From Lepisosteus oculatus (taxonomy: Eukaryota; Chordata; Actinopteri; Semionotiformes; Lepisosteidae): a stretch of 64,000 bases of DNA. Location of the stretch: assembly GCF_040954835.1 (NCBI RefSeq), contig NC_090697.1, positions 11,772,001 to 11,836,000 of the forward strand, in the 5' to 3' direction. Shown here piece after piece: positions 948 through 59,600 of the stretch; within the stretch, counting starts at the first letter, position 1, and every line of letters starts with the position of its first letter. The position numbers and the translations under genes are program-made. The notes beneath the pieces are model-generated. The model was not told the origin of the DNA. It made no database searches and saw only the letters and a list, made by a program, of their open reading frames with translations.

Positions 948-1231
948 CTAGTGCGAGGCGGGTACCAGCATGCCGAGCGGCAGGATGGGGCTGGGGGCGG
1001 GCGGCGTGCCGTTCAGGCTCTGGACTTCCGCCTGCCAGCTGGGGATCTTCTTCGCGGTCAGGTGGCGGCGGGCGTGCTTGGTCAGGTGGTCGCTGCGCAT
1101 GAAGCGCCGCTCGCAGACCACGCAGGCGAACTTCTTCTCGCCCGTGTGCGTCCGGCGGTGGCGCGAGAGCTCGTCCGAGCGCGCGAACTTCTTGTCGCAG
1201 CCCTCCCAGGTACAGCTGAAGGGCTTTTCAC
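948..1231 (-). CDS. KLF11: KLF11 last coding exon
   Basis: Acceptor AG at 1233-1232; the exon opens GTGAAAAGCCC, completing the Gly of the THTGEKP linker. It encodes zinc fingers 2 and 3 ([10 protein letters not shown] and [10 protein letters not shown] helices) and the tail ending in MLVPASH, then a stop at 948-950. Confidence 0.95.
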
Positions 1232-4200
1232 CTGGAACACAGGAAAACGAGAGAGAGAAATGAAACAACCGAGCCTGGGTGAAAAACCAGGTAACGGGCT
1301 CGCGGATCAGTTCACGTTCTTTGCCCGTCTGTTGTGAGGTTGGACAGGTGAACCCCTGTGGGTTCAGGACGAAATGTTTTAAGAGCTTCGTGAAAATAAT
1401 CTTTGTGACTTTACCATTTTCTTACGGTTTTAATCCAATTCAGGGCCGTGGGGGAGCCGGAGCCTATCCCAGCAGGCAATGGGCGGAAGGCAGGACACAC
1501 CCTGGACAGGACACCAGTCCATCGCAGGGCACACAGACGCAAACACCCACTCACACCAGGGCCAGTTCTCCCAGAAGTCAACCTACCTACCAGTGTGTCT
1601 TTAGACTGTGGGTGAAAACTCAATAAAACAGAGAACACAAACTCCACACAGAACCTGAACCTAGAGTCCCAGCACCACAAAAGAGCATCCTCAAAGTGTA
1701 TAAGTACTCTTATAGCACGCTGGAGTTCTTCTGAAAACTGTACATCTGAAGCACAGAATCATCTAGATGAACATTTCACCCACTTCTTTATGAATTTCAT
1801 GTTTCCCCCCCTAATTTTAAAACTAGAGACTTTGTGTGAAACGGGATTGATAATGAGCAGTATCCTTAAGACAACATTTGCCATTTCCATAGAAAATTGT
1901 TTGATATTTACAATTAACATATATATCAGAAAAATGCAAAAACTTTTAAAATAGTCCAATTATTCATGTGATTTAATTGGTCCCTTTCAGCCTTATATCC
2001 CCAAATATAGAAAAACAAATCTGTTTCAATCAACTGAACAGGTTGTTTCATACTTATTAAATTATTTCACACTATATCCCGTTATAATCTGTTGTTGCTT
2101 AATGACATTTTGCCGTGGTTTTACAGCACAGCGCTTATTGCCATCTTCTTACATCTTCGCGAGATAAAAAGTCTCCGGGTGTCTTATGAGAATTCAAGCC
2201 TTATGGGAAAACGTACATCGCGCCTGACACTGTTTGCGCCTATTCTTCTTCACTCCATAAAACCAAAACCACACACAAAAAGGCCATTTTCCCTCTCTAA
2301 CAACTCCCGACAACTCGGCCTTCAACTTGCGTACAACCTCGGTTCTGTCAACCGTTAAGTAAATCGGTTTATTCTCAAGCCTCTCCCCCTTGAGCACCGT
2401 TCGGTGCTACACTTTGACGGCCGCAGAATCAAATCTCCCACAAACACACTGTGTTATACGCTATCCTGAAATAAAACCCCAAAAACCCGGAATAAAGAGG
2501 GGCCGTGATACAAGGACATGCTGGTCGGCCGCGAGCAGTTCCCGCTGATACGCGATCTTTGTCACCGATCTGAAAAAAAGCGAACTTGGCCGTCGGAAAC
2601 AACCGAGTTGGCCGTCGGAAATCCGCAATCACCCCCCGATGTCATTTCCTCTCCTAAACCACTGGAAATCCCGTACGTGATCCCCTCTCCCTCACACACG
2701 TCTTCTTGCAGCCCTCCTCCCCCTCTGCAGCTGCCCCGTGGGTCACCCCGCGCGCTTGGCTTGGGGGGGGGGGGGGTCCCCAGCCTCCTCGTCCCGTGGC
2801 CGGGAGCTGGGCCCTCAGCCAAATCCGCACTCGGCATTCCAGAATCCTTCCCGGCGGGGCTGGTATTCACCTGTGTGGGTCCGGAGGTGCGCCTTGAGGT
2901 GCGAGCTCTTGAAGTAGGTCTTGCGGCACCCGGGGAAGCTGCAGACGTAGTTCCGCCGGCGGGAGAAGTCCGACTGGGAGGCGCTGGCGCCGGCGCCCTG
3001 GCCGGAGGGCACGTACAGGGGCGCGGGGGCCAGGGGCAGCAGTCTGGTGTTGCCCAGGGTCACGACCGCCTGCGGGCCCTGCGGGGGCTGTGGCACCGGG
3101 GAGGGGGGCAGGACGAGCATGACGGTGCCCTGGGGCACGGGGGCCCCCATCAGGAACTGCTGCGAGAAAGCGGCGGGGGCGGCCTGGGGCAGGATCGGCT
3201 TCACCCCGCCGGCGTGGGCCGGAACGGGCGCCTGGATGAAGGCGGATATCACGCCCGCCGCCTGCCCGTTCACCGGGAACATGTGGCACAGCACGGGCGA
3301 GCTGGGCACGGGTACTGGGCACGCGGGCGCGGCCGTGCCCTGGCTGTCCGCGACGGCGCCGCTATCCCGCGGGGCCGGAGGGGCCGGCGGCGCGGCGGAG
3401 GAGGAGGGCGCCGCGCGCCGGTCCCCCCCGGAGGCGCCGCAGCACGGGGCCGGCGGCGCCGAGGAGACGTGGCGGCAGGGGGTGCTGTCCGCGGTGTGCC
3501 GGATCACGCTGGTGGTCAGGGCCCGGCAGGGCCGCGGCGCGGACCGCTCCGGGGACGCCGGCGTCCGGGGTTCGGCGGCTCCGCCCGCGCAGAGCCTCCG
3601 GCCGGCCGCCGCCGCGGCTCTCGGCCCCGGTCCCGGCGCTGGCGGGGAGGCCGCGGGGGTGTCGGAGAAGCTGGGGCTGTGCGGCGGGGTCATGCACTGC
3701 AAACAAGTCCAAACAGCGGGAGACAGAGATTAGTCGGCCGCCGGCGCAGCTCACACCACGCCGTCGCCATGGCGTTGCTTCCTCACGGTCCCGATAACAT
3801 CAGCCATCCTTCCTCAAGGTAAACAGCCAGGCAGGGAGCAAACTCTGACTTTAAACTGCTGCCCAGCAGAGTTCAGCCTGGGATACACCGCCGAGTCCAA
3901 CCCAGTTCGCCGGATCTGAGCCCAGCCTCAGAGCGGAGCGCTCACGGGACAAACTCCCACCGACCTACAAGCTCGCCCGCCTGCAGACCCCCCAGTCTGA
4001 AAATAAAAACCAGAAGTACCTGGCCTAGCTACAACACACACATGGGCGGAGCGGTGCTCCTGTGGCTAAGGATCTGCGCCTGTGGCTGGAAAGGTTGCCG
4101 GTTCAAATCCCACAGGTGGCAGAGGAATCCTACTCTGTTGGGCCCCTGAGCAAGGCCCTTAACCCCAACTGCTCCAGGGGTGCTGTACAATGGCTGACCC

Positions 4201-4700
4201 TGCGCTCTGACCCCCAGCTTCTCTCCCTGTCTGTGTCTCAAGGAGAGCAAGCTGGGGTATGTGAAAAGACAAATTCCTAATGCAAGAAATTGTAAAGGGT
4301 TGTAAATTGTAAATTGTAAAGGGTAAAGGGTTAAAGTGATGTTGTTATTATTATTAACATCTAGCCAGTGTTTTACTGGAACCCAGCATCCAGGGAAAAA
4401 AAGAGGAGGAGGAGAGAGAGAGAGACCACCTTTCCTTACCAGCGAGGAAAAAGACACGAAGTCTCTGGGCCCGGGGCCGTCCAGCGGCGCGTCCGTGTGC
4501 AGCAGGGAGTCGCAGGAGTCGGAGGCCGGGGTGAGCGGCCGGGCCCGGCAGGGCTCCGTCCTGTGCGCCCTCTGACCCCAGGCGCTCATGCACACCAGCG
4601 CCTCCACCGCCTCCAGGTCGGTGTGCTCCAGCGCACCGCTGGCCGAGGACTGCTCGCTGTCGTGCCGCTTCCTCTCCATGATGGACTCGCAGATGTCCAT
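948..4700 (-). CDS. KLF11: KLF11, Kruppel-like factor 11 (TIEG2), 3 coding exons
   Basis: Nuclear Sp/KLF zinc-finger transcription factor that binds GC/CACCC boxes; family members of the TIEG branch recruit SIN3 and act in TGF-beta responses. Coding exons 4440-4700, 2871-3696 and 948-1231 join in frame (phases 0 and 1) to about 456 aa; human isoforms are about 495-512. Seen: N-terminal helix [10 protein letters not shown] at about residues 29-38, matching the SIN3-interacting region; a Pro/Ala-rich middle with KLF11-like stretches [28 protein letters not shown] and [11 protein letters not shown]; then three C2H2 fingers at about 337-361, 367-391 and 397-419 with TGEK linkers, followed by [10 protein letters not shown]. 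The middle-region matches favour KLF11 over KLF10. The Met in MDICESIM is taken as start because it matches a known shorter KLF11 isoform and no in-frame upstream ATG was found. GRHL1 lies upstream in the same orientation. Confidence 0.95.
1436..1680 (-). repeat. SINE-like repeat, family B, reverse copy in the last KLF11 intron
   Basis: Reads in reverse as the dispersed family also seen at 16750, 49961, 56340 and 61615. Shared blocks include GGAGCCTATCCCAGCA, CAGTCCATCGCAGGGCAC and the part complementary to TGGAGTTTGTGTTCTC. The copy is diverged. It lies about 200 bp from the last-exon acceptor. Confidence 0.7.
2871..3696 (-). CDS. KLF11: KLF11 central exon
   Basis: Acceptor AG at 3698-3697 and donor GT at 2870-2869. 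It encodes [10 protein letters not shown] onwards, the long Pro/Ala-rich regulatory region and all of zinc finger 1 up to THTG. Very GC-rich, which makes all six frames look open; only this frame has family similarity and matching splice phases. Confidence 0.95.
4046..4300 (+). repeat. tRNA-derived SINE, family A, in a KLF11 intron
   Basis: Contains a pol III B-box-like GGTTCAAATCC at about 4101-4111 and the family core (TGAGCAAGGCCCTTAACCCC, ATGGCTGACCCTG), with an A-rich tail ending in a short ATT run near 4355. Two more copies lie at 25171 and 48102. It sits antisense to KLF11, about 85-140 bp from the donor of the first coding exon. Confidence 0.85.
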
Positions 4701-4709
4701 GATGCCGGC
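4440..4709 (-). CDS. KLF11: KLF11 first recognised coding exon
   Basis: Acceptor AG at 4711-4710, donor GT at 4439-4438. Translation starts at 4700 ([14 protein letters not shown]). It encodes the SIN3-interaction helix [10 protein letters not shown] and [12 protein letters not shown]. The 9 nt before the ATG are in frame (Ala-Gly-Ile), so a longer isoform from an upstream coding exon is possible, but none was found. Confidence 0.93.
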
Positions 4710-5224
4710 CTGGGCAGGGGAGGCGAGACAGGGTTCGGGCGGGTCAGGGTTTTGTTTCGTTTTCTCACCGTGAGTTTTTTTTTTTTAAGTTTTTATTCCC
4801 ACCCGAGGTATCGTTTCAAGGGGTCTGTTCCGCAACAGCCCACTTGACTTCTATCCCCTCTGTGATACAAGCCAAGGAAAGACCCCTCCCAAAAAAGAAA
4901 GACATGCATTTTTAATTTAAAAAAAATGAAAATGAGTTCTCTGGGGGCACGAAGACGAGATCAGCAGACAAACACCTATAACGTTTTATAATTCTGTTTT
5001 GCCGGCTGGATTACGGTCTGCCAATCGCGGGCCGTGTAAGTGCATAACTGTCAGTTAAAAGCCACAACAACTCTGTAACATAACCGGCAGCATCTGAGCG
5101 ATCAGCTTCCGATGGCCGTCATAAAAAAAATAAATAATTATGAAGTGGAAAGCGCTGCCTCTACTCCAACCCCGCCTCCCTCCTGACATAGCGGATACTC
5201 CGCGGCGCGGGGAGCCGCCCATCG

Positions 5225-6600: not shown

Positions 6601-6957
6601 CAGGGCCGGCAGATCTGGTGCAGATCGTTTAAAAAAAAGAAAATCTGGGCGGTGGTACATTCTGTTACAGTAACAGAGCATACCGTCTGCTAACGTTAAC
6701 CGTACCCCCCCATATCGCGGAGCTGCAATTTAGCAACGATTTATTTATGACTTTTAGGTACAATGATACACTTTGCCGTCTTTATTGAATATTTGTTCAC
6801 TGCTGTTCCTTCTCACTCGATCACGGATCGCCACAGTATAATCGTATCCTCAGCCCGTTTTGTTTTCTGACAGAAAGCTCCCTGATCACCTGGTTGCACG
6901 TTTATCTCAGCACACACACCCCCGCCTTGCCCTAAGTGCCATGCCGCTATAAAATAT

Positions 6958-7060
6958 GAAGAAGGCTCCGCAGCTGAAACGTTGTGTTTCCTTTCTTCTC
7001 TTTTCACCAGGGAATAAATCCGTTACCTGTTCCTTTGCAGCCTACGCATGTTGACGGAGC
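6958..7060 (+). mobile_element. Penelope-like element 3' end (hammerhead-like core, mutated)
   Basis: Contains GAAGAAGGCTCCGCAGC, then TGAAACGTTGTG, then AATAAATCCGTTACCTGTTC and TTTGCAGCCTACGCATG. The same order recurs at 44697, 47444 and 53334, and at the end of the RT-bearing copy at 16155. The hammerhead core is damaged here (CTGA start lost, GCC changed to GCT). Confidence 0.65.
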
Positions 7061-7189
7061 TCCCTACTTGTACTGCTATACAATGTTGTTTCACAGTGTT
7101 TACCTGCAGAATTGGCCATTTTCCTGCCAAGCAGGAGCACCTGTTTGTGTGATGGTGGTAATGGGGCATGACGGTCATGGCGGATGGCT

Positions 7190-10259: not shown

Positions 10260-11900
10260 CCGGACAGTAACGCACATGAATTGGTCAAACAGAATTGAGA
10301 TTTGTATTTTTGCTGTGCAGTCCAGAATATGAAGAAATGTGTAAAACTGTTGTAGTTATATTATAGGAACCAGACTGATGTATTCCCTCCGAAATCCTGC
10401 TTAAATTTCTAAGTTGGGCTTTACACTGGATAACATCAACTCAAAAGCTATTTATACTTTCAGAAGAGAATTATACGTTAAAACACATGAAATCTCACAC
10501 CTGAACAAGGTTCAACAGCCGAAATGCTGTTCCTCTGACACAGTTTCCCACTCAAACCGTCTGCTCCCCCTGCTCCGTTGAAAAACAAATGAATACATTA
10601 ACAACATTGCAGCCTGCAGACACTATTTAGCTACTAAACTGTTCCCTTCAGATTGGTTTCTCAGGCTGCCCGAGTGCCGGTCCTAATCTTTGGCAACGTC
10701 TGCTGTACCAGGCATTGCATGTTACTAGGTGCTCTGTCCTCTCCTCAAGTTTTCAGTTTGGGAATTTGCTTGCTGTGGGAGCGTGCCATGTGTGCAGACC
10801 CAGTTTACAGAGGAAAACACGAGCTCAAAGAGCCCTACATGGCCATGACCTGAAGTAGTATTCTGTTGAGCAATGCTCCTGCAGGCCGGCACCCAGCTTG
10901 AGCAGAGGAAGGCAGGGCGTTTGTCGAACACGTCTGGGAGAGTTGAATGAAGCGAGCAAAGAAACTAGGGGAAAGGTTACTCCTAATATCCTCTCTGCTG
11001 CCGGAGCTGCCTCAGTGGCGGGCGAGGAGAACTCAGTCTGGCCAAGAGTAATGGCAGTCCGCGGGATAATTTGATCCGCGATCGCCGCGGTTTCCAGGGG
11101 AGTGTCTCTCCTCGCACATGTAGCGGAAAAAAAAGGCAGCCTCCAAAACCAAACTGAGCTATTTTAAAAAGCCATATTGAGACGGGTGTCGGAAAATCCT
11201 GTTGCAACACCAAAACCTCCCGTTTACCGAGAGGATGGCTTTAGCTCTCTATAATAAGAGGTGCCCTGGGAATCCAAAGTGAGAATTGGGGCTGGATTGT
11301 TTTTCCCAAAACATCTCGTGACGCCTACAGAGCAGAAACTCAATCTACCCCAAAGACACCTGTGAGAAGGCTAGTCTGATTTGCACCGCAGTTACGTCCT
11401 CTCTGTCATATCAAATCGAACTCATTTCAATAAACTTGGAAAAACAACATTACTGAAACAATGTTGGGAGACCGGAACAGAATGTGGCACGGCCTCATTG
11501 AGGAAACCGCTGTTTGGCTCAGGCTGCTGGGGTTGGAAAAGCAGTAGCCTATTTCTGTATTTCTGCACTGCTGTGTCTCAGTTTGTCTTCAAACACGGAA
11601 GAGATAAGCAGACGCGTACCCCTGCTGGAGCTGTGCCTGTGCGTCTGTGATGACTTGCACACGCAGGAATTCCACTGTGTCAACAGGAGGCACAGCAGAC
11701 AGAGAGCTCGTTTTTACTGCCCGAGAGCAGATGTCGAGAGGGCCTAGCATGTCACAGGCCGGGAACCAGGGGCTCCACTGGCATCACTGGCTCCAACACG
11801 CATCAGCACGGGCTCCTGAACAAGGTCAAGGTGAGCCTCTCACGGCCCCTCTTTCAGAGAGAAAACACGCCGTCTTGCCATTTAAACAAATCAGCTAATG
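10260..11900. other. Intergenic sequence with a GC-rich patch
   Basis: 10985-11120 is CpG-rich (GCGGGATAATTTGATCCGCG is a near-palindrome). A weak Penelope-end-like stretch occurs at 10500-10540. No coding exon was supported. Confidence 0.4.
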
Positions 11901-15394: not shown

Positions 15395-16290
15395 AGGTGA
15401 GAGCCTTATGAGACCACTGGTTCACAGGCTTCCTTCATATATTAAGGACACTAACCATGCTCTCCGACTTTTTGACAATTTCATTTCAGGGACCAGAAGT
15501 TTTCACTGTACACCGACATTCCCCAGAGTGACTGTCTTACAGCCCTCAAGCGCACGCTGGACAAACGCACAGCGCTTGAGCCACCCACCCACTCTCTTGT
15601 ACGTCTTGCGGAAGTGCTCCTCACTCTGAATGCCTCCTCACTGAATAACCTTTTTTATCAGCAGGTGAGTGGAGTTGCTATGGGCACCAGGTTGGGACCA
15701 GGCTCTGCTGATGTTTTTGATGACGGGGGAACGCTTTCAGCAGCCTCATGTACTGCAGCTCTTGTCCAGCTCTTCACATCGGTGAGACGGGAGGGCAGAC
15801 CATGTCAGGGAACTAGTCAGAGCTGTGAGGATCCAAGATCTCTCCACGCCCATAGTTCCCCATTTCACCTCTAACGGCCATGATCACACTGATCTCTCCG
15901 CCTGCGTCCTCACAGAGGGGTTTCAGAGCTCCTACTGGAGAAAGACATCTGAAAGCAAAATTATCCTGACACTAGGATCACATCTTCTCTCAACGGCAGA
16001 CTCGTCTCCTTCTAATCCTCCCTGTTCATTTGCAGGTTCTCTGCATCACAACTCTCCGGTTCTCCCTGAGTGTCGATACCCTTTCTTCCCTGCTCCTGCC
16101 CTGTCTTTTGTTCTCCCATGCTTTATTATCTACCAGATTCCCTCTCTCCCTCACACCTGAAGAAGGCTCCACCGCCGAAACCCGGTGTCTCTCTGTTTCC
16201 CTGTTTCTTTGCAGCCGACGCATGCCGACACGGGTCCCTGCTCATACTGAAGCTAATGCTACAGCATTAACCGGTGGAAAAGCACCAGTT
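15395..16290 (+). mobile_element. Penelope-like (Neptune-type) retroelement fragment: RT end, GIY-YIG, 3' end
   Basis: Broken frames give reverse-transcriptase motifs typical of Penelope elements (LPSYIKDTNHALRLFDNF, then YTDIPQ, then LVRLAEVLLTLN and FYQQVSGVAMGTRLGP). About 50-100 bp further come remnants of the GIY-YIG nuclease domain (CPALHIGETG, then VPHFTSNGHDHTDLSACVL and SYWRKTSESKIILTLGSHL). The fragment ends with the CTGAAGAAGGCTCCACCGCC / GAAACC motif at about 16157-16180 and CAGCCGACGCATGCCGAC. The RT is truncated at its 5' side and frameshifted, so it is dead. It ties the short 3'-end repeats elsewhere in the window to Penelope-like elements. Confidence 0.85.
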
Positions 16291-20797: not shown

Positions 20798-44015
<23,218 letters not shown>

Positions 44016-44696: not shown

Positions 44697-44775
44697 AGAT
44701 TGAAGAAGCCTCCACAGCCGAAACGTTGTGTCTTCCGTTTCCACTGTTCAGCGCGAAATGAACCTTTACGATATT
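44697..44775 (+). mobile_element. Penelope-like 3' end, 680 bp upstream of GRHL1
   Basis: TTGAAGAAGCCTCCACAGCC then GAAACGTTGTGTCTTCC. The hammerhead core is changed at its first base (C to T). Confidence 0.6.
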
Positions 44776-45139
44776 CATATTACACGGCTATTTGTGGTCT
44801 GTAATTGAATACGGATTCTTTAACCTTTAAATGTCAGTTTCCACAAGTGTTATTGTTATTCATTGTTTACTTTTCCAGTCATAAAACCAAAATGTTATCC
44901 AAAGGTTATCAAGCTATTGTAAGTGAAATATTCCTTGGTATCTAGTCCTCGCAAATCTTACCTAGACTAGAGCACGCGTTATTGGTAACTATCTAACACC
45001 TTGCTCCTCCTTAAGACAAAAAGTGAGCCCATATACAGCCTTGATGCTCAAAGAGGGAATATGCGTTTTTGACTAGACTGGTAAAATATCATATTTGTCC
45101 CCAAACAAGAGGACGCAAGTGGAAAAGTACGTTAAAGTG

Positions 45140-45275: not shown

Positions 45276-46420
45276 GATGTGCAGCCCGGCCTCTTCATGC
45301 GTGTCACTTTTAATATGTGAACTCATTTTAATAAAAAAGAGTCTCGAAATCTGTGACCTTATTTCTGCTCAAAGAAGACCAGATGGAAATGCACTGGTTA
45401 CAGGTTTTAGGGTCGCCCGACGAGCAGGACTGCAGTACCAGACCTTACTAGACATACTAAAACTGGATACCTTATGGGTGCGTTGTGCGTACTGTACATC
45501 GATGTTGTCTTGTGAACTTTCTGGACGGGTACTGTGACCAAGAAATGTTGCTTGAATGGAGATGATTCATCGGCAGGAATTTAAAAATACCACCACCATG
45601 CGTACGTTGCAGCGTGCGGTGAGTTTTCGAAGATAATCTATAAAACAATCTTAACGTGTCACCTGCACGCCGTTTTAGAATAGCACACGGTGCGCTTTGC
45701 GTGCTTTATACGGTATTATAAAATAACCAAAAAATGTCCCTGAATTTACCCGTAGTCCACACACACAACTCCATTTCCCGACCTTGTTTCGCGAAAGGGA
45801 ATAGGGCCTGGGTTCAATCTGAGTGATTATTAAACACACACTCTTTATCCATGTCCGTCTTAGACTTTGATCTGTTTCTAAACGTTTTTTTTATATATGT
45901 TTAAAATTCGCTTTATGCAAAACAAGATGATCGGAACCTATGAGATAAATCAAATGCAGGACAGAACCACAATGTATTATCAGATTTGGCAGTGGAGAAC
46001 TGTGTGAGATGCAAAGGAACAAGAAGGTAATTATTACACGCTGAAGTGTGTGGGAATTAATATCAAATATTGAAAATGTCAAGATACCATGAGGCTACTC
46101 TTGAAAACGACATTCCCTATCTCGGAAAGCAGCCTGACTGTACCTTCATTCTCAAGAACACCGTCTCCTTCAAAACAACCCTGATTTAGAATAGATGTTT
46201 TGAAACACGACAAGCTTTGGATTCTGCATGTTTGATATTGTTGGAGAAAACTAGCTTTGTTTTCAAATAAAGCATTGTAGGACACATATTTAGTTTTTTT
46301 TTTACTTATAAGTTGTGAAATACGAATTTATCCGGTTGAATAATGGGCTCTACCCAACACTGTATTAATAAATGAACCTTTTGAGTGGAAAGCACACTAA
46401 ATTGTTGATTTTAATTGTAC
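45276..46420. other. Intergenic sequence, nothing recognised
   Basis: AT-rich, without supported exons or repeat families. Confidence 0.45.
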
Positions 46421-46720: not shown

Positions 46721-47440
46721 TAGGAGTCGTTTTTACTTTAAACGATGTAATACAATGTATCCCCCCCCCTTCTTCGACACCAAAGACGATCAAGTAAGGT
46801 TCTTTCAAGGGAAAAAAAAACACGCTAGTTTTTGAACGTTTGATCCTAGATTTATTGATTTAGCTCTGCCTTCGCGTTCTCCGTTTTTACTTTTTAGTCA
46901 AAGACGACCTCCACCGTAAACAATCAAAAAATCAAAGGGAGAAACGGTACAGCAGAGGAAGACAAAATTCTCCGTTGATAAAGAAAGAATCGAAAATCGA
47001 AAGAATCGAGTTCGCAAAAATATAATTTTCTTTTTAATACTGAAAATATTTAAAACACGTGAAACAAAAAGCTAACATTCTCAGTTTCGTTGTTTAAATA
47101 ATAAAACTTTTGAGGTTTACAAAGCACAGGCTGCCTAGGTTCTAGTTTGGTTGTATTTTGCACCTACACGCCTGTTAACACCTGCTACTATGGTAGGTGT
47201 TTGAATAATAAGACATTTGCATTTATATAGCGCTTTTCATCCCAAAGCGCTTTACATATGGGAGGCGCTGCAGTAACTGCAGTGCGTGACATGCGGCAGC
47301 TTTTAAATATGCCGAATTGATATTTGTTTTTTAAACAAGGAGGAAAACCATAATTTAGCATAATCAGACTTAATAATGCACCTAATCACCCCGTTTACTC
47401 TGGTGGTTAGATAAAAAGAATAAGCTCTGCTACTAGTTCA
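46721..47440. other. Intergenic sequence with a small repeat tail
   Basis: ATTTATATAGCGCTTTTCAT followed by CAAAGCGCTTTACATATGGG at 47221-47265 resembles the tail of common fish SINEs. Otherwise nothing was recognised. Confidence 0.4.
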
Positions 47441-47443
47441 GGC

Positions 47444-47545
47444 GACACCTGAAGAAGGCTCCACGGCCGAAACGTTGTGTTTTTTCTTATCATTTCAGCA
47501 TGGGTTAAATCTATGACTTGTTTCTCTGCAGCCCTGCTATTATTC
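47444..47545 (+). mobile_element. Penelope-like 3' end with intact hammerhead-like motif
   Basis: GACAC (47444-47448), CTGAAGA (47449-47455), stem II GGC/GCC (47457-47459 with 47466-47468), GAA (47469-47471), AC/GT stem III (47472-47475), T at 47476, and GTGTT (47477-47481) pairing with GACAC. The element tail TTTCAGCATGGGTTAAATC and CTGCAGCC follows. Confidence 0.75.
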
Positions 47546-48101: not shown

Positions 48102-48370
48102 CGGGCAGAGCAGTGGCTCTGTGGCTCAGGATCTGTGCCTGTGGCTGGAAGGTTGCCGGCTCAAATCCTGCGGCTAGCAGGGGAATCCTACTCTGTTAGG
48201 CCCCTGAGCAAGGCCCTTCACCCCAACTGCTCCAGGGGCACCGTATAAATGGCTGACCCTGTGCTCTGACCCCCTGCTTTTCTCTGTCTCATGGAGTGCA
48301 AGTTGGGGCATGGGAAAAGATGAATTCCTAATACAAATTGTATAGGGCTAATAAAGTGATCTTATCTTAA
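48102..48370 (+). repeat. tRNA-derived SINE, family A
   Basis: GGCAGAGCAGTGGCTCTGTG head, B-box GGCTCAAATCC (one change), GCAAGGCCCTTCACCCC, and a tail AATAAAGTGATCTTATCTTA. Confidence 0.88.
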
Positions 48371-50615: not shown

Positions 50616-53600
50616 CTGAAAGAAAAACCCAAAACAGACAGAGTAATTTCACATAAAGCAAGAAAGAATTTAGATAATGAATCAAGAGAGACACCTCACT
50701 GATACATTTATTAAGTACTACATTTGTTGCTGTTTTTTTATATAAAGGTAAGTTTAAGAACAAAGAAATCTAAGAGATTCACATTTTCAGTTGTTAAGCA
50801 CTTTAGAAGCAGCTACACAACAATCAATAACAAAAATAAAGTTTCACCACTCTGGCGCATCAAAGTCAGAAGACTGATCTTTTTAACTGTAACGTCTGCA
50901 TCGGGCTGCGTGGTTCAGGTGTCCTACAGGACAAACTGTCCCCATGCTGGAGGAGCTGCTCAGCTGGACTGAGTCTATATTCTCCCCTGGGATCGCAATC
51001 TTCCACAGGGCACTTCGGAACAGGAAAGATCGAGAGTGGGAAAGAAGGACTACCCGAGCTGAGCTTAGAAGACACTAACAGACGAATTTGGTTTTTAGGT
51101 ATTGACATCCTTTAGAAAGAGTTCCAGTTCCATTTTCCCATTCCGTACACTCCTTTGACTTGTTTGTTTTACTTCCCAAAGGACCTGTAACTGTAATACC
51201 GGGATCTTTGTTTATGTGTAAACTCAGTCGTAGGACAGTGCCTGGTTTTAAAAGGTTAGGGGATCAGAACCTCTTATCCTCTGACAAACACTAATCCAGT
51301 GTCTGCTCACCCAAACCAACATCTTAGAATATAAAGGACCAAATTATACTCTCATTTATTAAAGACCACAACACTTGTACCGAGCTGAAGGATGAACCAT
51401 AGCTTATCTATCATACAATACCGAGGCTTCTGTCTTCATCCAGATAGGTTTTTGTGCAAAATCTAGAACAAAACTGTTCAATTCAATTTGTATTGGACTT
51501 ATACGGTTAACTGACAACTATGACTTATACGGATGACTGACATTTTGCTTGCAAAATGTTTTCACCACACAAAAAAAGAGACGTAACAGTTTGTTTTGTG
51601 AATTACTGTCATAATCAACTTACAAACTGCATTTATTGCTTAAATATGGGGTTAACAAAACTTATGCATCAATGTTCTTTATAAGTAGAGTTTTGCTATT
51701 AAGATCCAACCACATGTACTCTCTAGCATACTGTATACACAAAAGAAAGAAGCTCAGAAAGAAAAGGCTGACAAAAAACTGCCAGCCTATTACAACTTGC
51801 TCAGAGCAAATTAGCTCAACCAACACCCAACATGCACATCCAACACACAAGCAGGAACACAAGTGTATACATACACACCTACAAGCCCAGAGTGCCTGGA
51901 GCACTGATAGTCATCTTAAACCTGTGTTTTAGTGGAGGGGGATCTCTTGGCAGTTAGAGACCTTTTTTAAACCTTTCTGTCCAAGAGGTATGTTGCAATA
52001 AAAAGACTGCCATCAAGTGAAGAGTGTGGTTTTTCAGAAACCGTATGCTCTGAGCACACGCAAACAGATTCAAGAAACACCCAGCTAAAACAGTCGCCTG
52101 CTTCAGCGGCATGTCCTTCTGGAGAGCGGAGGCACCGACACGATCGCTCGAACCAGATGGCCCGAGAAGAGTTGCAATGATCAACCCTTTTCCCTCTCGG
52201 CATCGTCCACAGCTCAGTTAATACAACACGGTGTCTTACTGGCCTCAGACGTCCCACACACAAAGCCACAGCTGATCCCCGAGACGTCTCTATTCTCTCT
52301 GCAGGCAGACAGGATTCACCCCACACACGCTCACTCCTGACAAGAGCTTTCCATGCGTCAAGGTGTCTCTCTACTGCACGCATCCAGCTTGAGCTGTGGG
52401 CGGAATGAGGGATTCTCCGGGGACACTGGGTTGTGCCAGGAGAATCCCTCATTCCGCCCACAGCTCGATGCGTCTCATCCATCCAGCTCTACGCCTTACA
52501 CCTCTTGTGCGTGCCTCACCCACGAAACTGTCTCACAAACAGGGTCATTTCACTCTCTGGACATTTGAGGGTCTCAAACCCTGTTCCTGAAGGGCGGCCT
52601 TGTGTCCACCTTGAGCAGTTGATTAAACATTTATAAACCTAATTACTTTATTAAGTCATTAAGTCATATTTTTTTCTTATTCTCTTTTACAGTTGTTTAC
52701 ACAGGACGTTCACTTCATTAAAGGTAGATACCTAGAAATCACCGTGTAGACTGGTTAGGAGTATTACAATTAAGTAAACGAATTAAATAATGAGAGATTG
52801 TGGTTGGAATGAAAACCACAAGACATCAGGCCCTCTAGAAATGGCCATATCCCCCCTGCTATATCTCTTCTCCTTCTCATGAATGATATAAAGAGAGGTC
52901 CCATTAACCAAAAGGTATCGTCCAAGCGATCCAATCAACCTACAATGTCTCAGTTCCTAATAACCTGTTTCTATAGCTCTTACACTCCATTTTTCTTTTT
53001 TTCAAACAATGTTAATTGTTTTATTAAGGTACAATAATTTTGTACCTTATAATAACAATTTATTATTATTATTATCATTCAATAATTTAAATATAACAAC
53101 AATAATAAAACAATAAGATAATAATTGCACCACCCCGAATATACTTACCCCCCACCCCTAATCCCAGAGAAAGAAAGGATTTAACATGATCAAATAATCA
53201 AATGTTTTGTAAAATTATTTCTTTAAAGGACAAGAGAAAAAGCACGAACAAACTGAAATAATTACAAGATGATGTACAGCACACTCTAGTTGTAGTGTTC
53301 CTAATATTCAGACTACTAATATAACTTCCTATCTGACACCTGAAGAAGGCTGAGCAGCCGAAACGTTGCGTTTTCGCTCTTCTCTTTTCAGCATGGAATA
53401 AACCTATTACTTGTTCCTTTGTAGACCACACATGCTACCAACCTGAACGACTTCCTATCTGCTCTTACTGTCAACGTAAGGTACACACACAGTACCTCAC
53501 ATTACTGCTCTGCATCCACACTGTCTCTACACTGGCCGAACTCTTGCCACATCATTTCATGTGTGCGACATGCACAGTATTACTCATCCAGCTTGTGCTC

Positions 53601-56600: not shown

Positions 56601-59600
56601 AGTTTTCCCAGAAGCCAATTGACCTGCCAGTATGTCTTTGGACTGTGGGAAGAAACTGGAGCTCCAGGGGGAAAGCCCCATGAACGCATTGAGAACATAC
56701 AAACTCCACACAGACAGCACCCCAGACCTGAACCCAGAGCCCCAGCATCGAGAGGCAGCAAATGCTGAAAAATGTACACTTTTATATTTTTTACATTCCA
56801 CTGACCATGCACACCTTCAGAGTGATCTGGGAGAGCTGCACCGATCACACATGTGCCCACTGATACACTAGGTCAGGCCAGCTCAACTCTGCTCTGTTGG
56901 TCTCGAACTCCTACAGCCGAGTTCAAGCAGGTGGCTGGATAACGCACTACAGAAAAAGGGCTGTCCTGTGGAAACCCAGCCAGAGACAGATGGTAACCTG
57001 AGGTTGTCAAGCTGAGCAATAACCAGCCCTTCCACCAACAGCGCATGGACAAATATGTACCACAGACGTCATCTCCAGCACGCAGCCTGGGTCCTGCCCA
57101 GCCACCTCCAGGCACTGAGGTACAGCCTATCCTTCAACAGGAAACTGTGGAGGCAAACACCTGACACTGTTCCTTTGTATCTGTAATCAGAGTTTGGCCT
57201 TAACATGACAGCAATCTGTCATGTGGAATCTCTGTATGCTACAAAAGGAAATTCACAAAACAGAATCAAGGAATAACAATATTATCTTACAGTTTCATTA
57301 CAGTGCCTTGCGAAAGTATTCGACCCCCTTGAACTTTTCAACCTTTTGCCACATTTCAGGCTTCAAACATAAAGATATAAATTTTTTATTTTATGTGAAG
57401 AATCACCAACAAGTGGGACACAATTGTGAAGTGGAACAAAATCTATTGGATTTTTGAAACTTTTTTAACTAATAAAAAAATGAAAAGTGGGGCGTGCAAA
57501 ATTATTCGGCCCCCTTGCGTTAATACTTTGTAGAGCCACCTTTTGCTGCGATTACAGCTGCAAGTCGCTAGGGGTATGTCTCTATCAGTTTTGCATATCG
57601 AGAGACTGAAATTCTTGCCCATTCTTCCTTGCAAAACAGCTCGAGCTCAGTGAGGTTGGATGGAGAGCGTTTGTGAACAGCAGTTTTCAGCTCTTTCCAC
57701 AGATTCTCGATTGGATTCAGGTCTGGACTTTGACTTGGCCATTCAAACACCTGGATACGTTTATTTGTGAACCATTCCTTTGTAGATTTTGCTGTATGTT
57801 TGGGATCATTGTCTTGTTGGAAGATAAATCTCCGTCCCAGTTTCAGGTCTTTTGCAGACTCCAACAGGTTTTCATCCAGAATGGTCCTGTATTTGGCTGC
57901 ATCCATCTTCCCCTCAATTTTAACCATCTTCCCTGTCCCTGCTGAAGAAAAGCAGGCCCAAACCATGATGCTGCCACCACCATGTTTGACAGTGGGGATG
58001 GTGTGTTGAGGGTGATGAGCTGTGTTGCTTTTACGCCAAACATATCGTTTTGCATTGTGGCCAAAAAGTTCGATTTTGGTTTCATCTGACCAGAGCACCT
58101 TCTTCCACATGTTTGGGGTGTCTCCCAGGTGGCTTGTGGCAAACTTTAGACGAGACTTTTTATGGATATCTTTGAGAAATGGCTTTCTTCTTGCCACTCT
58201 TCCATAAAGGCCAGATTTGTGCAGTGTAAGACTGATTGTTGTCCTATGGACAGACTCTCCCACCTCAGCTGTAGTTCTCTGCAGTTCATCCAGAGTGATC
58301 ATGGGCCTCTTGGCTGCATCTCTGATCAGTCTTCTCCTTGTCTGAGCTGAAAGTTTAGAGCGACGGCCAGGTCTTGGTAGATTTGCAGTGGTCTGATACT
58401 CCTTCCATTTCAAGATGATCGCTTGCACAGTGCTCCTTGGGATGTTTGAAGCTTGGGAAATCTTTTTGTATCCAAATCCGGCTTTAAACTTCTCCACAAC
58501 AGTATTACGGACCTGCCTGGTGTGTTCCTTGGTCTTCATGATGCTCTCTGCGCTTTCAACAGAACCTTGAGACTATCACAGAGCAGGTGCATTTATACAG
58601 AGACTTGATTACACACAGGTGGATTCTATTTATCACCATCAGTCATTTAGGACAACATTGGATCATTCAGAGATCCTCGCTGAACTTCTGGAGTGAGTTT
58701 GCTGCACTGAAAGTAAAGGGGCCGAATAATTTTGCACGCCCCACTTTTCATTTTTTTATTAGTTAAAAAAGTTTCAAAAATCCAATAGATTTCGTTCCAC
58801 TTCACAATTGTGTCCCACTTGTTGGTGATTCTTCACATAAAATAAAAAATTTATATCTTTATGTTGGAAGCCTGAAATGTGGCAAAAGGTTGAAAAGTTC
58901 AAGGGGGCCGAATACTTTCGCAAGGCACTGTATATGCTAGACACAGCTTTGTCCTCCACGAACACACCAATTCAACTAGGTACTTATCCGATACTTTTTT
59001 AAATTACCTCACTTTGATATTTCTGGTTTTAGATGGAGTTTTAGTGATTTTATTGTCGTGTTCACTTGGGAGACTGCAATATGACAGATTTCACGTCACG
59101 GCACTGGAATATATCGATATATCCATAACATTACGGATGTTTGTCTTTTTATTCTTGGCATTTAAGAAAAACATCGGAAAAAAATCTTTTATATAAGATA
59201 GAAATTGCTGGGGAGATATTATCTTTTTTTAACTGCGTACACTGCAAATATTCCCAGGCACAGTGGTTTAAATTGGCCCTCATTCACACAGATAGTTCTT
59301 TGTTTTTAACCCTCTTAGGTCACCGGTGTTTCTAGTTGTTCTGGGATCTGAGAGCTTTCCTTGAGAATCTTCTGTAGTATATATAGCGCTTTAAATTTTA
59401 TCCTGCAGCTGAGCACATATCCAAGAAGCAATTTCTTGGAAGAAACCACGTTGCTAAATGTCGTAGTAAGCAACCAAAAAGAACTCATAATTATTCACAC
59501 CAAGCAAATGATTTGCCACAATTGCAAAATGCTGGATTAGCATTGCGTCAGACGGTCAAGTCTTCAAAACAAAAAAGAGAAAAAGAGAGCAAAAAGACAC

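What the first reader, a model, noticed from the sequence alone, without database searches (positions are those of the whole stretch)
47444..47481. Hammerhead-ribozyme-like motif in a Penelope 3' end
Seen: GACAC - CTGAAGA - stem II GGC/GCC - GAA - AC/GT - T - GTGTT. This meets every core requirement of a type I hammerhead (CUGANGA, GAA, A15.1-U16.1 pair, UH before the cleavage site), with an extremely short stem III and a 5-bp stem I. Predicted cleavage lies between 47476 and 47477. Known: hammerheads with minimal stem III have been described in Penelope-like retroelements of animals. Inference: this copy could still self-cleave, probably best as a tandem or dimeric RNA.
Basis: partly seen in the sequence, partly recalled or inferred. 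Interest (0 to 1): 0.72.

Follow-up and report, generated by a model that had tools for sequence, protein, structure and literature searches.

The report
Ordinary Penelope-type mini hammerhead ribozyme copy
A short, old piece of what is probably a Penelope-like jumping gene carries a stripped-down hammerhead ribozyme of a kind already described in such elements; whether this copy still cuts RNA is unknown.

Summary
The motif is real. At 47444-47481 (+) a hammerhead descriptor hits once in 64 kb and never in 100 shuffles (descriptor written after seeing the motif). There is an extra A between A9 and stem II; without it there is no hit. "Stem III" is ACGU with no loop, so it cannot form within one molecule, only between two copies. 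Rfam gives no hammerhead match. Both oddities (extra nucleotide after A9, loopless ACGU) occur in the Anolis Penelope element PAc, whose hammerhead was reported active with protein (PMC11167929). Minimal hammerheads lacking helix III are published as typical of Penelope-like elements. So this is a new copy of a known kind. Seven copies of this end lie in the window; only the focal one keeps both core and stem I. Five seem to start near the hammerhead's 5' edge, one with a perfect 12-bp target duplication; none starts at the predicted cut. Their templates were therefore uncut there. My bolder reading, that these starts mark the transcript's 5' end, is unproved.

The parts
47444..47481 (+). minimal type I hammerhead motif (c5): stem I 47444-47448/47477-47481, core 47449-47455, extra A 47456, stem II 47457-47460/47465-47468, GAA 47469-47471, ACGU 47472-47475, U17 47476
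47476..47477 (+). predicted cleavage site (between these bases); not tested
   Evidence: inference from hammerhead geometry
47436..47533 (+). short Penelope-like insertion c5 (5' end uncertain, 47433-47444; 3' end about 57 nt after the cut)
   Evidence: homology 47444-47534 to c6; weak target duplication; the 98-bp limits were set by hand
47423..47435 (+). left copy of possible target-site duplication, AGCTCTGCTACTA
   Evidence: script reports 10 bp with 1 mismatch (47423-47432), a score that 99 of 400 random placements reach; extension to 13 bp with 2 mismatches read by eye
47530..47542 (+). right copy of possible target-site duplication, AGCCCTGCTATTA
   Evidence: extension by eye; overlaps the last four bases of the element as drawn
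53336..53449 (+). sibling c6, 114 bp, perfect 12-bp target duplication (53324-53335 / 53450-53461; 5' end ambiguous by one base); core intact, stem I has one A.C mismatch
6956..7074 (+). sibling c1, 119 bp, 10-bp duplication with 1 mismatch (weak alone); stem I and C3 lost
10492..10581 (+). sibling c2, about 90 bp, 12-bp duplication with 1 mismatch; G8 and U16.1 mutated
44700..44776 (+). sibling c4; homology to the others starts at 44701, no duplication found; C3 changed, stem I lost, one stem II pair broken
16152..16249 (+). sibling c3 with coding-like remnants upstream; nucleotides 16.2, 16.1 and 17 mutated; tail deletion
15476..16000 (+). broken reverse transcriptase / endonuclease-like remnants upstream of c3 (motifs recognised from memory; no convincing Pfam match, no PDB match)
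38162..38221 (+). c7: tail-only copy beginning about 12 nt 3' of the cut position, preceded by an inverted piece of the same tail at 38126-38157 (that piece E 0.005)

Best explanation
The feature is the hammerhead motif of a Penelope-like retroelement, preserved in a short (about 90-98 bp) old insertion that holds only the hammerhead and the 3' part of the element. In the source element the RNA would fold stems I and II, and the palindromic ACGU would pair with the ACGU of a second copy (another repeat of a tandem transcript, or a second RNA), giving the shared stem III of a double hammerhead, with cutting after U17. Shown here: the motif, its shared oddities with PAc, the family of copies, and one insertion with clear ends (c6). 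Inferred: the Penelope origin of this copy, the dimer mechanism (described for the family in reviews) and any activity. The copy probably has no function of its own today.
For: Descriptor 1 hit versus 0 in 100 shuffles. Seven + strand copies of the same end in the window at E below 0.001. The PAc RNA printed in PMC11167929, run through the same kind of scan with the stem I minimum lowered from 4 to 3 bp, shows the same layout: one extra nucleotide after A9, ACGU with no loop, H17. Reported PAc reverse-transcription starts at +111 to +118 lie 82-89 nt past its cut; c6 ends 82 nt and c1 91 nt past theirs, c2 and c5 53 and 57 nt (the ends of c1, c2, c5 rest on weaker duplications). The gap of 25-38 nt between the two classes resembles the optional 30-40 bp 'tail' of Penelope insertions (passage). 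Reviews state that Penelope-like elements conserve minimal hammerheads lacking helix III that may cleave as dimers (passages), needing a palindromic stem III loop (passage).
Against: No Rfam hammerhead match. No covariation: 0 of 9 pairs change on both sides among 6 copies, and pairing is no better than in shuffles (369 of 500 as high), though much better than in slid versions. Fold energy is ordinary. In 98 nt of element stem I probability is 0.001 and stem II about 0.1; active PAc also gives about 0 for stem I, but its stem II is 0.65-0.98, so the focal copy compares badly there. The one double-hammerhead dimer I scored (two 38-mers) is -15.5 kcal/mol, worse than two monomers (-17.2) or the best predicted dimer, a long two-strand duplex (-20.4). 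No coding sequence belongs to the focal copy, and the reverse transcriptase identity near c3 rests on recalled motifs.
Confidence: 0.85

Rival explanations
1. The motif is a chance arrangement of letters in a repeat that has nothing to do with hammerhead catalysis.
For: No Rfam match, no covariation, and an exact match of a looser motif also occurs by chance inside an open protein frame of a viral contig (L001).
Against: 0 of 100 shuffles, though with a descriptor written afterwards; the same oddities as the PAc hammerhead, reported active; over all six copies the core letters agree in 158 of 180 pairwise comparisons against 231 of 315 for the other columns 6-38, a modest difference.
Confidence: 0.07
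2. The short copies are ordinary 5'-truncated insertions: the reverse transcriptase simply stopped near the hammerhead, perhaps at a structure or pyrimidine tract just upstream.
For: 5' truncation is common in retroelements (recalled); c3 has a pyrimidine-rich stretch just upstream of the hammerhead; c7 shows that starts elsewhere also happen.
Against: Five of seven copies seem to start between 1 nt after and 16 nt before C3, tighter than free truncation should give; only c6 is firmly placed, with c1 and c4 placed by loss of homology.
Confidence: 0.5
3. The short copies come from reverse transcription that starts at the internal site of the first repeat and runs to the 5' end of the transcript, so the hammerhead sits at the extreme 5' end of the RNA.
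For: c6 begins (within one base) with the A that is +1 of a YYANWYY initiator (TCACACC) in c3, 31 nt after a TATA-like TTTATTA; PAc has TATATA and an initiator match also 31 nt apart, 14 nt before C3. In PAc reverse transcription starts internally, near the start of the ORF.
Against: Few copies; the PAc leader holds 4 initiator matches and the 80 nt before c3's core hold 2, and I picked one of each; initiator matches occur at about 1 per 100 positions; TTTATTA is a weak TATA; starts scatter over up to 17 nt; no RNA data.
Confidence: 0.28

Closest known systems
PAc (Poseidon of Anolis carolinensis) hammerhead, PMC11167929 (passages and one Methods section read)
   Same: CUGANGA core, one extra nucleotide after A9, loopless ACGU, short stem I; some insertion 3' ends at 82-91 nt past the cut against 82-89 nt in PAc
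   Different: PAc has a 6-bp stem II, a 3-bp stem I and C at 17, and its start codon lies in the hammerhead; the focal copy has a 4-bp stem II, 5-bp stem I, U at 17, no ORF, and is a short fossil
Minimal hammerheads of Penelope-like elements (Cervera and de la Pena 2014; Lunse et al. 2017; neither held here, titles seen in reference lists and content in reviews)
   Same: type I, no real helix III, dispersed and in pseudo-LTRs, proposed to act as dimers
   Different: nothing seen that sets the focal motif apart; the originals could not be compared letter by letter
Amphibian retrozyme / newt satellite hammerheads (PMC7229834, passages)
   Same: weak helix III, better cleavage as dimers
   Different: those lie in ~300-bp tandem repeats; the focal copy is a single short insertion

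Membership tests
Minimal type I hammerhead ribozyme | Core CUGANGA ... GAAA ... UH with stem I open-ended and stem II closed | tested here: met
   with one extra A after A9, where PAc has an extra U
Minimal type I hammerhead ribozyme | A15.1-U16.1 closing pair of stem III | tested here: inconclusive
   letters present, but a 0-nt loop forbids it in a monomer; possible between two copies, not favoured by energy
Minimal type I hammerhead ribozyme | Match to a curated hammerhead covariance model | tested here: not met
   no power control with a known Penelope-type hammerhead, so weak as a test
Minimal type I hammerhead ribozyme | Compensatory changes in stems I and II across copies | tested here: not met
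   0 of 9 pairs in 6 copies; few and decayed copies
Minimal type I hammerhead ribozyme | Self-cleavage lost on C3 or G8 mutation | not testable with these tools
   needs RNA
Penelope-like element (3' part) | Telomerase-like reverse transcriptase plus GIY-YIG endonuclease upstream | tested here: inconclusive
   none found upstream of the focal copy (tblastn with c3 pieces); remnants upstream of c3 recognised from memory; Pfam gave only two unrelated weak matches (E about 0.2), PDB none
Penelope-like element (3' part) | Insertions with short target duplications and an optional 30-40 bp tail | tested here: met
   c6 perfect 12 bp; c2, c1, c5 weaker; none for c3, c4; two classes of 3' end, 53-57 and 82-91 nt past the cut. 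For the focal copy itself the duplication is weak
Double (dimeric) hammerhead | Palindromic stem III loop | tested here: met
   ACGU
Double (dimeric) hammerhead | Second motif in tandem in the genome | tested here: not met
   no adjacent partner; six motifs 2.7-28.5 kb apart, only c6 with an intact core besides the focal one; whether the source element was tandem cannot be seen here

The most novel reading that the evidence does not exclude
In this Penelope-like family the transcript starts at the 5' edge of the hammerhead, so the ribozyme sits at the very 5' end of the RNA. Reverse transcription from the internal start of the first repeat runs off there and yields ~90-120 bp 'hammerhead plus tail' insertions from uncut RNA. 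This would explain the many dispersed minimal hammerheads in animal genomes. It would also suggest that the ribozyme's job is to remove the 5' end of the transcript, switching it out of use, rather than to make insertion templates.
Probability: 0.26. Interest if true: 0.55.

Novelty: new member of a known kind. Interest (0 to 1): 0.27.

Why it matters
As a find it adds one more fossil copy to a described family. What could matter is the pattern of insertion ends: the six copies in this window that include the hammerhead region all span the predicted cut, and none begins at it. That argues that their templates were not cut at this hammerhead, in line with the in vitro result that cleavage is not needed for insertion (PMC11167929, passage). 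The role of these ribozymes is called unknown in print (PMC7761336, passage), and the 5'-end pattern gives a cheap genome-wide test.

Tried and rejected
Looking for relatives outside the window found nothing useful. One viral-contig pattern match (L001) lies in an open protein frame and is taken as chance. Scans with a longer motif or with the tail found 0 in viral contigs and 0 in prokaryote genome contigs. A protein search of viral contigs with the c3 remnant found 28 pattern stretches and no relative. These collections are of viruses and prokaryotes, so the misses say little about animals.

I asked whether c4 and c5, 2.75 kb apart on one strand, could be the two repeats of one element. No piece from the c3 region matches between them at E up to 1, except matches that reach into the motif itself, so I dropped it, weakly. 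The apparent duplication at c7 is a repeat inside its own inverted structure. An antisense Hammerhead_HH9 match at c6 (11.1 bits, cut-off 52, E 1.9) is taken as chance. Covariation was sought and not found. A covariance model from the six copies finds those six below E 1 (by construction) and 13 others at E 1.4 to 9.6.

Fold energies were tried as a test of activity and judged indecisive: PAc, reported active with protein, also shows stem I probability of about 0, though its stem II is far better predicted than the focal one. A first count of core conservation used only c1, c4, c5 and c6 (67 of 72). c2 was not in that alignment and c3 was left out for its deletion, and both carry core mutations, so that figure flattered the core; all six give 158 of 180. 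Letter searches of papers gave one unrelated paper and none.

I raised the chance rival from 0.06 to 0.07.

Full report
Observation. A scan for stem I of 4 or more pairs, CUGANGA, 0-1 extra nucleotide, stem II of 3 or more pairs, GAA, A15.1, U16.1, H17 and stem I finds one place in both strands of 64 kb, 47444-47481 (+), and none in 100 dinucleotide shuffles. The descriptor was written after seeing the motif. It needs the extra A at 47456; with none allowed there are 0 hits. ACGU with no loop cannot be a hairpin, so stem III is absent in a monomer and can exist only between two copies. Rfam gives 0 matches at gathering scores in the whole window, and no hammerhead among the 6 and 3 weak matches around the motif.

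The family. Six motif copies (up to 3 mismatches) lie on the + strand against 0.03 expected: c1 6956, c2 10501, c3 16157, c4 44700, c5 (focal) 47449 and c6 53340. A profile of the end adds c7, a tail-only copy at 38162, making 7 + strand matches below E 0.001. Seven weaker matches (E 0.005 to 4.5) were not counted; one of them is the inverted piece beside c7. Only the focal copy keeps core and full stem I. c6 keeps the core with one A.C in stem I. c1, c2, c3 and c4 have lost core or stem letters. Over all six copies the core letters agree in 158 of 180 pairwise comparisons, the other columns 6-38 in 231 of 315, and columns 1-5, which are probably target DNA in c1 and c4, in 35 of 75. For c1, c4, c5 and c6 alone the core gives 67 of 72 and the tail 194 of 285. 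There is no covariation: 0 of 9 pairs change on both sides.

Is it Penelope? The focal copy has no coding sequence of its own. Upstream of c3 lie broken reading frames with LYTDIP and QVSGVAMGT motifs that I recall as Penelope reverse transcriptase. Pfam gave no match for one piece and two unrelated weak ones (E about 0.2) for the other, and PDB gave none. Stronger is the comparison with PAc, whose RNA is printed in the Methods of PMC11167929 (section read). The same kind of scan, with stem I of 3 pairs allowed, finds in PAc one extra nucleotide after A9, ACGU without a loop, H17 and a 3-bp stem I. Passages of that paper say that this hammerhead cuts only when protein is added, that C3 and G8 mutants are dead with partial rescue by the double mutant, that cutting is not needed for insertion, and that reverse transcription starts 111-118 bp into the ORF. 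That is 82-89 nt past the cut. In the window, c6 ends 82 and c1 91 nt past the cut, c2 53 and c5 57 nt. The two classes differ by 25-38 nt and resemble the optional 30-40 bp tail of Penelope insertions. c3 (homology end 65 nt past the cut, with a deletion inside), c4 and c7 were not classed.

Insertion ends. c6 is bounded by a perfect 12-bp duplication at edges found independently by homology; 4 of 400 random placements score as high. c2 has 12 bp with 1 mismatch (27 of 400 as high). c1 and c5 have 10 bp with 1 mismatch (99 of 400 as high, so weak alone). c4 and c3 gave none. The 5' ends lie 4 (c6, or 5), 0 (c1), 9 (c2) and, least surely, 5-16 (c5; 13 as drawn by hand) nt before C3; c4's homology begins one base after C3. 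c3 continues upstream, and c7 begins about 12 nt 3' of the cut position. None of seven begins at the cut. The templates that made the short copies were therefore not cut at this hammerhead. A TATA-like and initiator pair 31 nt apart stands just upstream of the hammerhead in both c3 and PAc, and c6 starts on the base that is the initiator A in c3. PAc's leader has 4 initiator matches and c3's 80 nt have 2, so the choice is partly mine. This suggests transcript run-off, but numbers are small.

Folding. The 38-mer folds to the hammerhead shape as its minimum, with an ordinary energy (z -0.57); c6, c1, c2 and c4 fold otherwise and c3 only roughly so. With flanks stem I is not predicted in the focal copy, but neither is it in PAc. 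Stem II is predicted at 0.65-0.98 in PAc but at 0.09-0.53 in the focal copy with flanks and about 0.01 or less in c6. The one double-hammerhead dimer I scored is not the favoured dimer by energy. Folding therefore does not decide, and leans against easy activity.

Literature. Reviews state that all available Penelope-like elements carry minimal hammerheads, usually lacking helix III (PMC6155905, passages), that thousands lie dispersed in animal genomes with unknown role and may act as dimers (PMC7761336, passages), and that dimers need a palindromic stem III loop and tandem motifs (PMC6466107, passages). Solo pseudo-LTRs, head-to-head inversions and tails are described in rotifer Penelopes (PMC3846280, passages). 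The two founding papers were not held. A search for an 11-letter piece of the motif found one unrelated paper. Two searches aimed at short or solo hammerhead insertions listed 9 of 9 and 10 of 32 papers; apart from the papers named here I saw only the listings, so I make no claim that the 5'-end pattern is absent from print.

Verdict. It is a new copy of a known kind.

Noticed in passing
57299-58932: Tc1/Sleeping Beauty-like transposon: uninterrupted 334-aa transposase frame at 57571-58572 (-) with HTH and DDE_3 Pfam matches, between 223-bp inverted repeats 97% alike; probably young.
   Followed up: partly
38126-38221: Tail-only Penelope-like copy with an adjacent inverted piece of the same tail, like the head-to-head inversions described for rotifer Penelopes.
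   Followed up: partly
46000-46050 (-): Weak minus-strand match to the tail profile (E 0.005).
   Followed up: no
30434-30963 and a little beyond: Tandem array with a 20-bp step, open in several frames on both strands.
   Followed up: no
951-1421 (-), 2818-3729 (-), 4032-4784 (-), 36676-37206 (-): Exon-like frames. The first has C2H2 zinc fingers (Pfam; Krueppel-like factors are among many PDB matches), the second one weak finger; the last two recall KLF11 and GRHL1 from memory, with no Pfam match, so the focal copy may lie antisense near a vertebrate GRHL1.
   Followed up: partly
4045-4292, 25172-25412, 48103-48343: Three copies of a repeat that looks SINE-like to me (kind recalled, not tested).
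   Followed up: no
52391-52466: Near-palindromic stretch, 87% self-complementary over 76 bp.
   Followed up: no
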